Positions 51,688 through 57,401 of a DNA stretch of 64,000 nucleotides are shown here, piece after piece. The stretch spans positions 62,001-126,000 of the forward strand of contig NZ_AUEY01000004.1 of assembly GCF_000426225.1 (NCBI RefSeq), read 5' to 3'. Position 1 is the stretch's first letter. Every line of letters starts with the position of its first letter. The DNA comes from Desulforegula conservatrix Mb1Pa (GTDB taxonomy: Bacteria; Desulfobacterota; Desulfobacteria; Desulfobacterales; Desulforegulaceae). Position numbers and translations under genes: made by a program. Under the pieces are notes generated by a model, which was given only the letters and a program-made list of their open reading frames with translations, made no database searches and was not told where the DNA came from.

Positions 51688-51740
51688 GCCTCCGGCGGGT
51701 CGCTTTTTGAAAAAAGCTCCGCAAAAACTTTAGGATTCTG
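51688..51740 (+). repeat. Dispersed about 50-bp repeat, copy j
   Basis: A full-length plus-orientation copy, nearly identical to copy a: GCCTCCGGCGGGTCGC, TTTTTGAAAAAAGC, TCCGCAAAAACTTTAGGATT. It lies in the leader of the beta-lactamase gene, 60 bases before its start. Confidence 0.85.
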
Positions 51741-51800
51741 CCTGACCCTCGAAAAAAAACAGAGCATAGCTGCTCAAAAAACACACATAAAGATAGAGAA

Positions 51801-52583
51801 ATGAATAAATTCCTTTTTTGCGTTGCTATTTCCTTCTTTTTTGTTTTAGCGACCCAGGCACATAGCGAAACTTTTGTTGAAGATCCTGATATTTCAAATC
51901 TTTTCAAAAATAAAAAAATTAATGGAACCATAGTCATTGCATCTCTGAAAGGCGACAAGACATTTTGTCACAATAAAGACCGCGCCAGATCCCGTTTTCT
52001 TCCTGCATCGACCTTCAAGATACCAAACACGCTCATAGCTCTTGAAGAAGGTGCAGTGGCAGATGAAAAAGAAATTATAAAATGGGACGGTAAAAACCAG
52101 GAGATTCCAAGCTGGAATAAAGACCAATCCATGGAGACAGCTTTCCCATCTTCATGTGTCTGGTTTTATCAGGAGCTTGCAAAACGTGTGGGCAAAGACA
52201 AGTACGAGTTCTATCTTAAAAAAATAAAATACGGAAATGAGCAGGCTGGCCCCGAAATCACCACATTCTGGCTTAGTGGGGATTTAAGGATCAGCGCCTT
52301 TGAACAGATTGATTTTCTTAAAAAAGTCTATACCAGAGCGTATCCTTTTAAAACGTCATCATACGAACTGCTCAAAAAGCTCATGATTATTGAACAGACA
52401 TCTTCCCATACTATAAGGGCAAAGACCGGATGGTCACAAAAAGTTGGCTGGCTCACAGGCTATGTCGAATCAGGTGGCAAGGTATGGTTTTTTGCAACCA
52501 ATATGGAGATCAATACCCCAAAGGATCTTCCCCTTCGCCAGGAAATTACCTTTGAGGCGTTAAGGCTCAAGGGTATAATCTGA
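51801..52583 (+). CDS. Class D (OXA-type) beta-lactamase
   Basis: A 260-residue exported serine beta-lactamase that hydrolyses penicillin-like drugs. The signal peptide is MNKFLFCVAISFFFVLATQA. All class D motifs are present: STFK (S70-K73, acylation Ser and carboxylated Lys), SCV (118-120), YGN (144-146), the WLSGDLRIS segment with the conserved Trp at 157, and KTG (208-210) followed by W. Length is usual for the class. There is no transposase, integron or resistance gene next to it and its codon use matches the flanks, so it looks like an intrinsic chromosomal gene. Its activity spectrum cannot be read from sequence. Confidence 0.93.
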   Translation: MNKFLFCVAISFFFVLATQAHSETFVEDPDISNLFKNKKINGTIVIASLKGDKTFCHNKDRARSRFLPASTFKIPNTLIALEEGAVADEKEIIKWDGKNQEIPSWNKDQSMETAFPSSCVWFYQELAKRVGKDKYEFYLKKIKYGNEQAGPEITTFWLSGDLRISAFEQIDFLKKVYTRAYPFKTSSYELLKKLMIIEQTSSHTIRAKTGWSQKVGWLTGYVESGGKVWFFATNMEINTPKDLPLRQEITFEALRLKGII

Positions 52584-52649
52584 CTCGATCCAGCAAGGCG
52601 GGAAACCACACTGATAATGATCCACAAGCCCAAAAGCATGATCGGGATC

Positions 52650-54041
52650 TTATCTGCTTATCCAAAAAAAATTCTCCAGATGGAATTCGAACTGTTCTTC
52701 CCATCTTGAAAAGCCGTGGTAATTATCCTTGTGATGAAGCCTGTCTTTTGCAAGGTTTCTGTCTTTGAGCATGGAAACGTTCACATTGACAGTCTCGTCA
52801 GGGCTGAATGGGAGCTGGCTGTAAACATAAACGGCTCCGCCCACGCCGCCAAACTCGACAAACCAGTGATCCCCGACCTTCATTATGAGGGCGTTATTAT
52901 GAAGAATGCTAAGGCCGTCATCAATGGCGATAAGTCTGCCTTCCATTTTTCTTTTCTGATCCATGAATTCCGGGCGCCTGTCAGTCATGGCGTCCCTGCC
53001 AAGGGCAAAATACATCTCGCTGATTCGAGCAATATGCCGAATCCAGAAATCAGAACGCCTCGAGCTGTTGAATCCGTCTCCTGAAAAAAATTCAAAAAAC
53101 CGCTTAAGAAGATCCACCCGTATCCATCTTGCCACCATATTTCTTGCTTCAGATGAAACCATCTTCCATTTTGATATCTCCGAAAAAATCCAGGGATTCT
53201 TCCAATGTCTGACCGAAAAATACATAAGTTCAGGATTAATATGCTCTATTCCGAAGGATGAATATCTGTCCAGAATCATGGAAAGGCCCTTATCGAGAAA
53301 GCGGGCGTAACGTCTGTCTTCGAGCATTTTCATGAGCTTTGGAAGATAACTTATGAACTCGTCATCACCGCACTCAATGGCAGCTGAAAATCTCGCCTTG
53401 AAAATTGCCCTTGAAACCCAGGTAGAAGCAGATATGTCAAGTTCCGCTTGTTCGCCGGTTAAAAAGCCCTTGCCATATCTTTCGCAGGGGTTATTTGAAA
53501 GGAGATTTCTGTGTTCGAGTATGGCATTCATCCAGTCATGCATAGAAAGTCCTGAAATGCTTAACTGACTGATTTTCTTTTCAAGATAGAATCTTAAAAA
53601 CTCCCAGTTCTTTTTGCCAGTTTCAGTCGAAGCCTTATCATCAGGATCATATCCGAAATAAGCGGCAAGAAGCCCCCTGAAGCATCTGCGGAATTCCTTT
53701 GGCTCAAGCAAATAGCCATCGACTGACGTCATAAGCCTCTGAAAAAGCCTGTCATCCTCTATCAGAAGGTATTTACCATCTTCTAATCTCGTTGCAGCTC
53801 CCCAGCAAACAAACCTGGTCTCCCTTGAACCTTTTAATCTGAATGAAGACCTGAAAGATAAAACCGCATCACGTATCATTTTATCCGGCGGTTTTGTATT
53901 TGAGACATGGCTGAGCCATGAGTGGATTTTTTTTGCCTCTGTCTGTATTTTTTTTATGGAATCGTCACCAAAGCGCATTTCTCCCGCGACTTTAATATTG
54001 ATGGCGTTCAGATCGCTTATGAGGGTATTAAGCGGGTTCAT
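52650..54041 (-). CDS. zorC: EH_Signature-domain protein, ZorC-like
   Basis: A 463-residue protein starting at the ATG 54041 (MNPLNTLISDLNAINIKVAG), one base after the zorB stop. The N-terminal two thirds are helical. The last part carries the EH_Signature arrangement: RRSDFWIRHIARISEMYFAL, then a beta-rich KVGDHWFVEFGGVGGAVYVY with the conserved Glu, and a closing FEFHLENFF with the His. In type I Zorya systems ZorC binds DNA and works with the ZorAB motor and the ZorD helicase-nuclease. ZorD or ZorE is not downstream: a divergently placed beta-lactamase gene follows. The family call rests on domain pattern and gene order. Confidence 0.75.
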   Translation of the reverse strand: MNPLNTLISDLNAINIKVAGEMRFGDDSIKKIQTEAKKIHSWLSHVSNTKPPDKMIRDAVLSFRSSFRLKGSRETRFVCWGAATRLEDGKYLLIEDDRLFQRLMTSVDGYLLEPKEFRRCFRGLLAAYFGYDPDDKASTETGKKNWEFLRFYLEKKISQLSISGLSMHDWMNAILEHRNLLSNNPCERYGKGFLTGEQAELDISASTWVSRAIFKARFSAAIECGDDEFISYLPKLMKMLEDRRYARFLDKGLSMILDRYSSFGIEHINPELMYFSVRHWKNPWIFSEISKWKMVSSEARNMVARWIRVDLLKRFFEFFSGDGFNSSRRSDFWIRHIARISEMYFALGRDAMTDRRPEFMDQKRKMEGRLIAIDDGLSILHNNALIMKVGDHWFVEFGGVGGAVYVYSQLPFSPDETVNVNVSMLKDRNLAKDRLHHKDNYHGFSRWEEQFEFHLENFFWISR

Positions 54042-54042
54042 G

Positions 54043-54765
54043 CTACATTCCAAGTACGCAGTTACCAAAATCACCCCTGACAATGCCCTCTGTGGAAGGA
54101 CGATTTTCTCCTATGCCAAGAAATTCGAGTCTCATTTCAATTCGCCGACTGGCTTCCAAAGAGGATTTAGCAGAATTGAAGGAATATCCGCCCACCATGA
54201 AAAGCTCCCGGATCTGCTCACGAATTTCAGGAGCAAGCGGAATCTCTCCTGGAAGAGGATTTGCAAGAAGTGCGCAAAGAACCATCTGACTCCTCTGAAG
54301 TGAAAGATTAAGATTATACAGATATGTCCCCCTTGAATCAGCAAAACCCTCGACAACAACTCTCTTCAGCCATTTTTTACCAAGATCGTCATTTGCGACC
54401 GCAAGAATATCAGGAATAAAGGATCTCAGAAGTTTTGCCTGATCAGGAGTAAGTTTGTAACTTCCGGTCTCGAATCTGGCCCTTTCCCCAAAATCTATTA
54501 CCTTGCGTTCCTGATCCACGGTCACGCCCGGAAAATTAACTGTAATTTCCTTCATTTTGTCTATAAGGCTGTCAATGTCAGACTCCCTTGAAGTTTTTGC
54601 CCTTTCAACTTCCGTAACTGTCTTGGTTACAGCAAGAAGTGCTACGCTCATTACAACAAGAAAAAGAACCATGAGCGCTGTCATGAGATCGGCAAAAGAA
54701 ATCCAGAACGGCTTTTCAGCTTCATCCTCTGACCCTCGCTTTATAACTATACGTCCGCCCAGCAT
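54043..54765 (-). CDS. zorB: ZorB-like OmpA/MotB protein of a Zorya-type motor
   Basis: A 240-residue protein. A short N-terminus is followed by one membrane helix, FWISFADLMTALMVLFLVVM, in which Asp26 is the likely proton-carrying residue, as in MotB and ZorB. Residues about 95-235 are an OmpA-like peptidoglycan-binding domain (KVIDFGERARFETGSYKL, VVVEGFADSRGTYLYNLNLS). The ATG at 54765 follows GGGAGG located inside the end of zorA, so the genes are coupled. Together with ZorA it would form an inner-membrane, proton-driven motor that senses phage-induced envelope damage. Confidence 0.85.
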   Translation of the reverse strand: MLGGRIVIKRGSEDEAEKPFWISFADLMTALMVLFLVVMSVALLAVTKTVTEVERAKTSRESDIDSLIDKMKEITVNFPGVTVDQERKVIDFGERARFETGSYKLTPDQAKLLRSFIPDILAVANDDLGKKWLKRVVVEGFADSRGTYLYNLNLSLQRSQMVLCALLANPLPGEIPLAPEIREQIRELFMVGGYSFNSAKSSLEASRRIEMRLEFLGIGENRPSTEGIVRGDFGNCVLGM

Positions 54766-54770
54766 ATTTT

Positions 54771-57020
54771 CTATACCTCCCGGGAAACACTTCCGCCAAT
54801 TCTGCCGATGGTGGCTTCAAGCTCCTCAATCCCCTCACGAAGCTTTGAAACAGCCGTAGTAAGATGATCAAAAAACTGGGTATTAACATCTTTAAGTGTG
54901 GAACGCATATTTGATGAAAACTCCTTATGCGTTGTAGTCAGAACTTCTGAAACAGATGAAAGATAACCATCCGCCTGCTGCTGGGCTGCAAAAAGCTTCT
55001 TGGCAGAACCGTCTATCCTGCTCAGGACATCTTCTGTGAGACTCGCTTCCCTTCTGGCTGATTCAACAATGATGCTGACATTATCAAGCATAGCAGAGAG
55101 GCTTTGCTTCGAATCCCTGAAATCGCTCGATATTCCTTCCAGCATCCTCGCAGCTCCTGCAACGGATGATGATGACGAAGACATATCCTTGCCAATAAGC
55201 GAGAGTTTATCAAGTATTCCGGTCAATCCCCTTGATGCCTTGCCAAATTCCTCGGAAGACATGAGAAGATTTTTAGAGCCTTCGTTCATGTCCCTGGCAG
55301 AGGTTCCTGTTATTTCAGTAAGGTCAGTGACAGCAAGGTGAATGGATCTGACTGCAGTTGTTGTGTTGTCGTTGCTCGTCTCAACCATGCGGGAGAGACT
55401 GCTGATCATCTCTGTTGTTTTGCCTGTTGAAAGAGAAACCGTATTTTCGACATTTTTGGAAAAATCAATAACAGCCTTCTCTGTTCTGTCAACAAAGCGT
55501 TCCTGCTGTTTTTCTATAACGTTCAGAAGCTGAAGAATCTGGTTCTGCATGGTCTGCATGGAATTTTTCAGTTCGGTTGAAACCGAGCTGATCGCGTTAA
55601 CAGTGGCAAGGGAGAGATCACTATGTGTGGTTTTATTCATTACAGTCATATCATTGGCCTGGTTTCTCAGTTCCGAAACCATCAGAGAAACCTGGCTGCC
55701 AAGTTCAGAAATAATCTCCTGCAGTTTTCTGGATGTTTCTGACTGGGACTGGCTGACCAGATTCCTTATCTGCTCAACAAATTCAGACATCGTTGCATTC
55801 ATCATTCTCTGGCGGACTTCCATGGAAGAAACCGCGTCCGTCATTTTTTCGGCCATAGCATCGGTAGCGCCGCGTCCTGCATCATTAAGATCAGACATCA
55901 TTTTATTAAGCTGATTGACCGCTGATTCAAGAGCCGTCAAGGTTTTCTGCTGAATATCATTCATTCCTGTTATCTGGCCGCCAAGAAGCTCGTTCTGATC
56001 TTTGGAAAAGGAAGAAAGCACGTCGCCAAGGGCCGAACTTATTTCATCCCCTGCCCTCTCCCTCTGTCCGCGGAACACTTCGGCAATGGACTCGAGGGGT
56101 TTGGAAATTCCGGCCTCTATGCTTTTGACAATCTGGTCTCCAAGATCCTTCTGACTAGTAAGCGTTGCATGGGCAAAAACTGACATCTGCTCGTTAAATG
56201 CGGTGATCTGTTTCTGATTGAGCTCGAACATGGTCTGTTTAAGCTCCATGATAAAGGAATCCTTCAGATTCCTTGACTGAACGCTCGAATCCTCAGACGC
56301 TTTAACAAGTCTTTCAAGGTATTCCTCTCCGGCTCCTGTTTCAAAAAAACTGTCTATTATATAACAGAGCTGCTCAATTTTACGGTGAAGTGAAGAAAGC
56401 AGACTTTTTTCTATGAGAGTGACGAGCATTGCAAGGCCAATTGCTATGGCAGATACGACAAAAGCCTCTGATACTCCGGCAAGCAGGCTTTCAAGGCTTT
56501 TACGCACAATTTCGGTATTTTCAGAAACGTTGAAGGCTTTCAAACCTTTTATCAGACCAGAAAAAGTCCCGATTATGCCAAGGCCCGTAAAAATACCTGG
56601 AAGATGCCTGAAAAAATCAGCGCTCAGACGACTGTCCACAAGAGCCTGGGTACTGAAAAAAGCCTCGGCAGGGACAGTTGCCCTCAGTGCATGGATTTCT
56701 TCTTCACCTGTTTCAGGATTGATTCTTTTTTGGGGATGAAGGGTATCTTTATATTCAGTCCAGAGATGGAACATTTCCCTGCCCCGCTTGGCAGAAAAAA
56801 GTTCCGAAGGATCTATTCCTTTGGTCTTTTTGAAATTCCTGAGATCCTTTAGAAGATTCCGAAGCTTAAAGGACAGATAAAGACCTTTAATAAGATATTT
56901 CCATAAAAATGCCAGGGACAGAACAATTATGAAACAGCCAACTATCTGAACCTGTAGAGGAAGGGCCGACACCAATGCCGTTGTTTTTACAAAAAATGTG
57001 TTTAGATCCATATCAGGCAT
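54771..57020 (-). CDS. zorA: ZorA-like MotA/TolQ/ExbB protein with long cytoplasmic tail
   Basis: A 749-residue protein. Residues 1-215 form a MotA/ExbB-type channel unit: helix QIVGCFIIVLSLAFLWKYLI, then LPGIFTGLGIIGTFSGLIKG and EAFVVSAIAIGLAMLVTLIE. After that comes a very long alpha-helical tail rich in Ser, Glu and Gln (about 220-745), much like the cytoplasmic tail of ZorA. The tail could be mistaken for a chemotaxis receptor but has no receptor tip motif. It is first of three coupled genes, zorA-zorB-zorC. The assignment to ZorA over a generic TolQ-like protein rests on the length, tail and partners. Confidence 0.85.
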   Translation of the reverse strand: MPDMDLNTFFVKTTALVSALPLQVQIVGCFIIVLSLAFLWKYLIKGLYLSFKLRNLLKDLRNFKKTKGIDPSELFSAKRGREMFHLWTEYKDTLHPQKRINPETGEEEIHALRATVPAEAFFSTQALVDSRLSADFFRHLPGIFTGLGIIGTFSGLIKGLKAFNVSENTEIVRKSLESLLAGVSEAFVVSAIAIGLAMLVTLIEKSLLSSLHRKIEQLCYIIDSFFETGAGEEYLERLVKASEDSSVQSRNLKDSFIMELKQTMFELNQKQITAFNEQMSVFAHATLTSQKDLGDQIVKSIEAGISKPLESIAEVFRGQRERAGDEISSALGDVLSSFSKDQNELLGGQITGMNDIQQKTLTALESAVNQLNKMMSDLNDAGRGATDAMAEKMTDAVSSMEVRQRMMNATMSEFVEQIRNLVSQSQSETSRKLQEIISELGSQVSLMVSELRNQANDMTVMNKTTHSDLSLATVNAISSVSTELKNSMQTMQNQILQLLNVIEKQQERFVDRTEKAVIDFSKNVENTVSLSTGKTTEMISSLSRMVETSNDNTTTAVRSIHLAVTDLTEITGTSARDMNEGSKNLLMSSEEFGKASRGLTGILDKLSLIGKDMSSSSSSVAGAARMLEGISSDFRDSKQSLSAMLDNVSIIVESARREASLTEDVLSRIDGSAKKLFAAQQQADGYLSSVSEVLTTTHKEFSSNMRSTLKDVNTQFFDHLTTAVSKLREGIEELEATIGRIGGSVSREV

Positions 57021-57401
57021 AAGATCACTTTCTTAAGGATGTGGGATTAATCGAATCAATAAAAGAAGATTTGGAAAACAGTTTTTTATAAAACGTTGCA
57101 AACAGGGGTGTTGTCAAGGTTTAAATGAATGATTCACGATATTGTCAATCAGAAAAAAGCATCTGAGAGTGCTGGAAACGGACGTAAACCGGCTTTTAAG
57201 TCCATCTCCTTTTTATGGGCGTAGGTATCTAAACAATTTGGATATGCAGATACCATTTAGCCCCGAAAGGCAATGATGTTGAAATAAGACAAAATGTAGG
57301 GTGCGTGGCGCTTTTCCACGCACCGTTTTGTTCAAAAGCATGGTGCGTGCAAGGACGGCACACACCCTACATAAAATTATAATTCTTATTATTCGATGAT
57401 C
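57021..57401. other. Intergenic region with a large palindrome
   Basis: 381 bases upstream of zorA and downstream of the rhodanese gene. It holds the palindromic element at 57295-57371; the promoter of zorA must lie at about 57030-57150, which is A/T-rich, but no clear -35/-10 pair was fixed. Confidence 0.5.
57295..57371. repeat. Nested palindromic repeat
   Basis: The ends TGTAGGGTGCGTGG and GGCACACACCCTACA pair with one another, and inside GTGCGTGG, CGCTTTT, CCACGCAC forms a second hairpin. The whole can fold into a branched structure. It resembles the smaller palindrome at 7732-7759. It lies just downstream of the rhodanese gene stop. Confidence 0.7.

What the first reader, a model, noticed from the sequence alone, without database searches (positions are those of the whole stretch)
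52650..57020. A zorA-zorB-zorC operon without zorD or zorE
Three coupled genes encode a MotA-like protein with a very long tail, an OmpA/MotB protein with membrane Asp26 and an EH_Signature protein. This is the start of a type I Zorya anti-phage system, but the ZorD helicase-nuclease that should follow is absent; the next gene is a convergent beta-lactamase. Either the effector lies elsewhere, it was lost, or this is a reduced variant in which ZorC or another protein is the effector.
Basis: partly seen in the sequence, partly recalled or inferred. Interest (0 to 1): 0.72.

Follow-up and report, generated by a model that had tools for sequence, protein, structure and literature searches.

The report
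Phage-defence motor operon without its nuclease
The bacterium carries a three-gene version of the Zorya anti-phage machine (motor, anchor and DNA-associated adaptor) whose DNA-cutting enzyme is gone; similar nuclease-less versions turn up in other bacteria and are kept intact by selection, so the cutter may not be needed everywhere.

Summary
At 52650-57020 (-) lie intact, coupled zorA (749 aa), zorB (240 aa) and zorC (463 aa) with strong PADLOC type I and Pfam EH_Signature matches. The locus is far from a contig end. No zorD lies nearby, and ZorD queries of the 96%-complete genome find only a 1379-aa SNF2 protein 21 kb away that matches the helicase part alone. One thing was missed: ZorC also lacks its linker and C-terminal domain; its predicted fold equals the ordered core of solved ZorC (8r68).

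The nearest relative (L027) has zorABCD with a full ZorC, so zorD and the ZorC tail were lost in this lineage. Such loss is recurrent: among 68 assessable loci close in ZorB, 17 lack zorD. They form at least two further lineages, and an AU test rejects joining the window to the other tail-less one. There zorC stays under purifying selection (omega 0.09-0.25, as with zorD).

Most likely this is a secondarily reduced, probably still functional ZorABC variant. Decay of this one copy is the main rival. It meets three of the four defining genes of type I Zorya. No function was tested.

The parts
54771..57020 (-). zorA: MotA/ExbB-like motor subunit with long cytoplasmic tail, 749 aa
   Evidence: PADLOC ZorA1 6.5e-202; PF01618 3.1e-05; PDB 8qyd ZorA 5e-68
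54043..54765 (-). zorB: MotB/OmpA-like peptidoglycan-binding subunit, 240 aa, membrane Asp26
   Evidence: PADLOC ZorB1 1e-103; PF00691 and PF13677; 8qyd_F 2.8e-59; all 61 near-invariant positions kept
52650..54041 (-). zorC: EH_Signature core only, 463 aa (ATG at 54041), E396 and H437 kept; linker and C-terminal domain absent
   Evidence: PADLOC ZorC1 4.8e-122, profile 24-462 of 570; PF15611 1.8e-33; alignment; model mean pLDDT 87.0; 8r68 Z 21.4
52584..52649 (-). 66 bp between the zorC stop and the convergent stop, where linker, C-terminal domain and zorD would lie; no remnant found by eye in three frames
   Evidence: three-frame translation of 51701-52700
51801..52583 (+). convergent flanking gene, penicillin-binding/class D beta-lactamase-like, 260 aa; not part of the system
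   Evidence: PF00905 8.5e-38; 'class D' is recalled

Best explanation
A secondarily reduced type I Zorya operon. SHOWN: its closest relative is a zorABCD locus, so it most simply descends from one; zorD and the ZorC linker and C-terminal domain are missing, while ZorA, ZorB and the ZorC core are intact. INFERRED: it still works as a three-protein unit. ZorA5ZorB2 would sit in the inner membrane, dock to peptidoglycan when a phage breaches the envelope, run on ion flow and pass the signal down the ZorA tail to the ZorC core. ZorC core would then be the only dedicated cytoplasmic output, most likely by holding or blocking incoming DNA at the breach, or by presenting it to a nuclease that is not dedicated to the operon.
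For: Intact coupled ORFs. Near-invariant positions kept: ZorA N-part 41 of 44, ZorB 61 of 61, ZorC core 31 of 33. EH residues E and H present in 80 of 83 ZorC rows, the other 3 having a gap there; the window is among the 80. The ORF ends where the ordered fold ends: model confident to about residue 470, last helix 461-476; 8r68 aligned to chain residue 471, Z 21.4 over 369 residues. Sister locus L027 has full ZorC and ZorD, support 100/99. zorD-less zorABC recurs: 17 of 68 assessable loci; 0 of 22 such genomes had a full-length ZorD while 4 of 4 controls did. zorC omega 0.09-0.25 in 11 zorD-less pairs against 0.13-0.22 in 4 informative zorD+ pairs.
Against: No function was tested. ZorABC taken out of a four-gene type I system gave no significant protection in E. 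coli (PMC11890865 Fig. 2a legend). The selection test uses other lineages; the window has no close relative in the sets searched. Its branch is longer than its sister's (0.73 against 0.38). In its own phylum the other 5 loci with a true ZorC all keep zorD.
Confidence: 0.55

Rival explanations
1. Recent decay: one 3' deletion removed the zorC linker and C-terminal domain plus zorD, killed the system, and the three remaining ORFs have not yet degenerated.
For: One event explains both absences; sister L027 is complete; the other 5 true zorC loci of the phylum have zorD; longer window branch; ZorABC alone did not protect in another system.
Against: No frameshift or stop in about 4.3 kb; near-invariant positions kept; the break lies at the fold boundary; the same ZorC length without tail and without zorD is found in an independent lineage (L036, L037, L038, L081) under purifying selection.
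Confidence: 0.33
2. The effector acts in trans: an unlinked helicase or Mrr-type nuclease of the same genome replaces ZorD.
For: The genome has one SNF2 protein (1379 aa, C4:140131-144270) and two Mrr_cat proteins (C7, C21); ZorD of L027 combines SNF2 and Mrr_cat; 19 of 22 zorD-less genomes gave at least a partial helicase match.
Against: SNF2 is general (it rang in 14 of 14 control genomes); this one lies beside priA-like sequence (my reading) and scores best to DpdE models; only the ZorD helicase region matches; no linkage; 3 of 22 zorD-less genomes had no match at all.
Confidence: 0.09
3. ZorABC has left defence and serves envelope or stress signalling.
For: In 12 of 22 zorD-less loci a Ser/Thr kinase and a cyclase-FHA protein lie beside zorABC, in varying order, and in none of the other loci compared.
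Against: These genes were not detected in the window; the association lies in one clade; ZorC of this type is patchy in the Gallionella-type family (28 of 150 genomes), which is more like an accessory defence gene.
Confidence: 0.03

Closest known systems
Zorya type I (zorABCD; E. coli, Shewanella)
   Same: ZorA, ZorB and ZorC families, gene order, coupling, membrane Asp, peptidoglycan-binding domain, EH residues, core fold of 8r68
   Different: no zorD; ZorC without linker and C-terminal domain
zorABCD of Candidatus Contendobacter (L027)
   Same: closest relative found: ZorA 44%, ZorB 72%, ZorC 40% identity
   Different: ZorC 573 aa; ZorD 1253 aa with SNF2, Helicase_C and Mrr_cat
zorD-less zorABC of Oxalobacter/Burkholderiaceae (L036, L037, L038, L081)
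   Same: no zorD; ZorC 475-477 aa without C-terminal domain
   Different: separate lineage: AU p 1.65e-06 against one clade
zorD-less zorABC of Gallionellaceae and others (17 loci)
   Same: no zorD
   Different: ZorC 521-534 aa with a short divergent C-terminal part; 12 of these 17 beside a kinase and a cyclase-FHA gene
Zorya types II and III
   Same: ZorAB motor
   Different: ZorE, or ZorF and ZorG, in place of ZorC and ZorD; here ZorC is present, one ZorE model found nothing, DUF3348 search inconclusive

Membership tests
Zorya type I | ZorA: MotA-like motor protein with long tail | tested here: met
   PADLOC ZorA1 6.5e-202; 8qyd 5e-68
Zorya type I | ZorB: MotB/OmpA-like with membrane Asp | tested here: met
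   PADLOC ZorB1 1e-103; D26 invariant
Zorya type I | ZorC: EH_Signature protein | tested here: met
   PF15611 1.8e-33, cut-off 27.5, score 116.9; EH residues kept; 8r68 Z 21.4. The C-terminal domain is absent
Zorya type I | ZorD: SNF2 helicase with Mrr-like nuclease | tested here: not met
   no zorD beside zorC; own genome: PF00176 and a close ZorD find only the 1379-aa SNF2 protein, matching ZorD residues 571-1072 of 1085 at 36%. The genome is 96.4% complete
Zorya type I | protection against phage | not testable with these tools
   needs an experiment
Zorya type II | ZorE HNH nuclease | tested here: not met
   PADLOC model PDLC00645 finds nothing in the own genome; one model only, ringing in 1 of 14 controls
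Zorya type III | ZorF (DUF3348) and ZorG (DUF2894) | tested here: inconclusive
   PF11828 finds nothing, but no control rang either; DUF2894 not searched

The most novel reading that the evidence does not exclude
ZorABC without ZorD is a recurrent, selectively maintained form of Zorya that arose at least three times and defends (or signals) without a dedicated nuclease. The ZorC core is its output; in a Gallionella-type branch a Ser/Thr kinase and a cyclase-FHA protein may take the effector's place.
Probability: 0.4. Interest if true: 0.8.

Novelty: new variant of a known kind. Interest (0 to 1): 0.62.

Why it matters
Current models make ZorAB a breach sensor that recruits a nuclease. A lineage-spanning set of zorABC operons kept by selection without that nuclease would mean that ZorC has an output of its own, and it gives natural ZorD-free systems in which to test what ZorC and its EH residues do. 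It also means that loci which annotation tools would count as incomplete Zorya may be a real subtype.

Tried and rejected
Contig-edge or assembly artefact: rejected, since the operon is 114.65-119.02 kb into a 158-kb contig. Third gene not EH_Signature: rejected. C-terminal domain or zorD hidden in another frame downstream: none seen in three frames.

A conserved gene replacing zorD: no family follows zorC across all the zorD-less loci. Ten neighbours, mostly downstream of zorC, scanned with Pfam gave a kinase, a cyclase-FHA, glycosyltransferases, a histidine kinase, an oxidoreductase, a partial NAD-synthase match, a WD40-like match and proteins without a match. Ten proteins (downstream neighbours, two of them further from zorC) scanned with PADLOC gave only one with a hit, a type III ZorA in L104.

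Hu et al. 2025 (Nature, the ZorC/ZorD structure paper) is not held, so its statements on ZorC are recalled and not used as evidence. Searches of the held library for ZorD-less Zorya showed no description of it; this is not proof of absence from print. The species of the window was not determined.

Weak points: I left L099 in the 'D' group although no zorD was found in it (its zorC is broken), and I labelled L104 zorD-less although its ZorC is 584 aa and looks degenerate; one search uses 32 rows without either. The AU test group was named after the tree was seen. A first AU attempt on 83 rows did not finish. In one search the ZorA value 46/46 of L064 comes from a partial protein. L036 is labelled Alistipes but its locus is nearly that of Oxalobacter L037; probably a mixed bin. 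The omega values are counting estimates by a script of my own (Nei-Gojobori type); pair L033/L035 (dS 0.01, zorC omega 0.40) was dropped from the quoted zorD+ range. The kinase/cyclase association may be one inherited event.

Full report
THE OBSERVATION. The three ORFs are present, complete and tightly coupled on the minus strand: zorA 54771-57020 (749 aa), zorB 54043-54765 (240 aa), zorC 52650-54041 (463 aa from the ATG one base after the zorB stop). PADLOC names them ZorA1, ZorB1 and ZorC1 with E-values 6.5e-202, 1e-103 and 4.8e-122; Pfam gives MotA_ExbB, MotB_plug plus OmpA, and EH_Signature. Solved relatives are ZorA and ZorB of 8qyd and ZorC of 8r68. The window is G000:C4:62001-126000 of a 158,136-base contig, so the operon is not at a contig end. 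Downstream is a convergent gene, beta-lactamase-like by Pfam PF00905. Upstream lie a rhodanese and a MauE/DoxX-like gene.

NO ZORD, AND A SHORT ZORC. In the own genome (96.4% complete) the SNF2 family has one member, a 1379-aa protein at C4:140131-144270, 21 kb from zorA. It scores best against DpdE models, then ZorD models, over its C-terminal helicase half. ZorD of Polymorphobacter finds the same gene only, at 36% over residues 571-1072 of 1085. One ZorE model found nothing; DUF3348 was inconclusive because no control rang. Aligned with five ZorC proteins from zorABCD loci, the window ZorC stops right after the core and lacks the linker and the C-terminal domain; three-frame translation of the following kilobase shows no remnant that I could recognise.

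SHAPE. AlphaFold2 on an alignment of 29 ZorC sequences gives mean pLDDT 87.0 and pTM 0.77; confidence is high to about residue 470 of 477 (numbering from the TTG), and the last helix is 461-476. The best structural match is 8r68, Z 21.4, rmsd 4.0, 369 residues aligned, chain residues 58-471; the resolved chain has 391 residues although the protein has 560. The window protein thus equals the ordered core of ZorC.

RELATIVES. In 395 genomes drawn from the phylum, a ZorC model rang in 8. Apart from the window, 5 have a true ZorC and zorD follows in all 5; the other 2 (G071, G277) share only the C-terminal domain. A scan of genome contigs with a ZorB alignment found 259 encoding stretches, of which the best 80 were kept. 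Of the 80: 51 have zorD; 17 have a complete zorC and at least 3.8 kb of downstream DNA without zorD; 6 have a complete zorC but too little downstream DNA (5 of them of zorD-less types, plus L071); 3 have zorC cut by the contig end; 1 has a broken zorC (L099); 2 have no zorC. So 17 of 68 assessable loci lack zorD; one of the 17, L104, looks degenerate. A ZorD search of the genomes of 22 zorD-less loci (these 17 and the 5) found no full-length ZorD in any: 3 had no match, the rest only partial matches of at most 42% identity, mostly in the helicase region; the 4 control genomes gave near-full-length ZorD at 41-61%.

HISTORY. On ZorA N-part, ZorB and ZorC core the window is sister to L027, a complete zorABCD of Candidatus Contendobacter (99 in an 83-row quick tree; 100/99 in a 32-row careful tree). 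The label 'no zorD' needs 4 changes on the first tree and 3 on the second. The tail-less and zorD-less ZorC of Oxalobacter/Burkholderiaceae (L036, L037, L038, L081; 475-477 aa) is not joined with the window (AU p 1.65e-06 against one clade; group named after the tree was seen). The Gallionella-type branch (17 loci, ZorC 521-534 aa with a short divergent tail) is separated from the Oxalobacter type by Crenothrix with zorD (L063, L064), so those two may be two losses or one loss and a regain.

IS IT ALIVE? In 11 zorD-less pairs zorC has omega 0.09-0.25, zorA 0.03-0.21 and zorB 0.03-0.14 (zorA was not scored in one pair). In 4 informative zorD+ pairs zorC has 0.13-0.22; a fifth (L033/L035, dS 0.01) was dropped. 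So in those lineages zorC is kept without zorD. The window itself has no near relative to compare, but it keeps 41 of 44, 61 of 61 and 31 of 33 positions that are at least 95% conserved in zorD+ loci, and E396 and H437 of the EH signature are kept. Against function: ZorABC, cut out of a complete type I system, showed no significant protection against phage Alma in E. coli (passages of PMC11890865), and the other true zorC loci of the phylum keep zorD.

HOW IT WOULD WORK. From PMC11890865 (abstract, introduction, discussion and passages read): ZorA and ZorB form a 5:2 ion-driven motor; peptidoglycan binding by ZorB, ion flow and the ZorA tail are needed; [quoted passage not shown] The window keeps everything upstream of the nuclease. 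I infer that the ZorC core is the output, by holding incoming DNA or handing it to a general nuclease. This step is not shown.

CONTEXT LEAD. In 12 of 22 zorD-less loci, all of the Gallionella type, a Ser/Thr kinase (PF00069) and a cyclase-FHA protein (PF00211 and PF00498) lie beside zorABC. The order varies: the kinase follows zorC in L075, the cyclase follows zorC in L039. None of the other loci compared, nor the window, has either. ZorC of this kind is patchy: 28 of 150 genomes of that family gave a match, 3 of them weak.

VERDICT. The finding is real and more than a curiosity of one genome: a reduced ZorABC operon derived from zorABCD, one of at least three independent cases if Crenothrix did not regain zorD. 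It is not filed as a type I Zorya because zorD was tested and not found. Whether this copy works is undecided; I put function at a little over one half.

Noticed in passing
L039, L041, L047, L062, L069, L072, L075, L076, L077, L078, L097, L101: Ser/Thr kinase and cyclase-FHA genes beside zorABC in 12 of 22 zorD-less loci and in none of the other loci compared, in varying order.
   Followed up: partly
window 57295-57371: Hairpin upstream of zorA (DNA fold z-score -5.35) whose 16-base arm occurs 12 times in the genome with up to 1 mismatch, 0 in the reversed control; looks like a dispersed palindromic repeat.
   Followed up: partly
L042, L043, L044, L045, L049, L053, L065: Methylococcaceae-type loci with roughly 0.7-3 kb inserted between zorB and zorC; possibly an extra component.
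   Followed up: no
L024:8802-10355 (-): 517-aa protein that shares only the ZorC C-terminal domain, beside a PAPS-reductase-type protein: the ZorC tail occurs in other systems.
   Followed up: partly
L047:12374-13984, L076:12372-13982, L078:12376-13995: Unknown 536-539 aa protein about 80 bp after zorC in three Sideroxydans-type zorD-less loci; the L047 copy has no Pfam or PADLOC match.
   Followed up: partly
G000:C7:71410-71763 and G000:C21:14590-14940 (L155, L156): Two Mrr_cat proteins in the window's genome, possible but unlinked nucleases.
   Followed up: partly
L104:15225-18382: A second zorAB, type III by PADLOC for zorA, downstream of a zorD-less and degenerate-looking zorABC.
   Followed up: no
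window 51801-52583: Penicillin-binding/class D beta-lactamase-like gene convergent with zorC (PF00905 8.5e-38).
   Followed up: no
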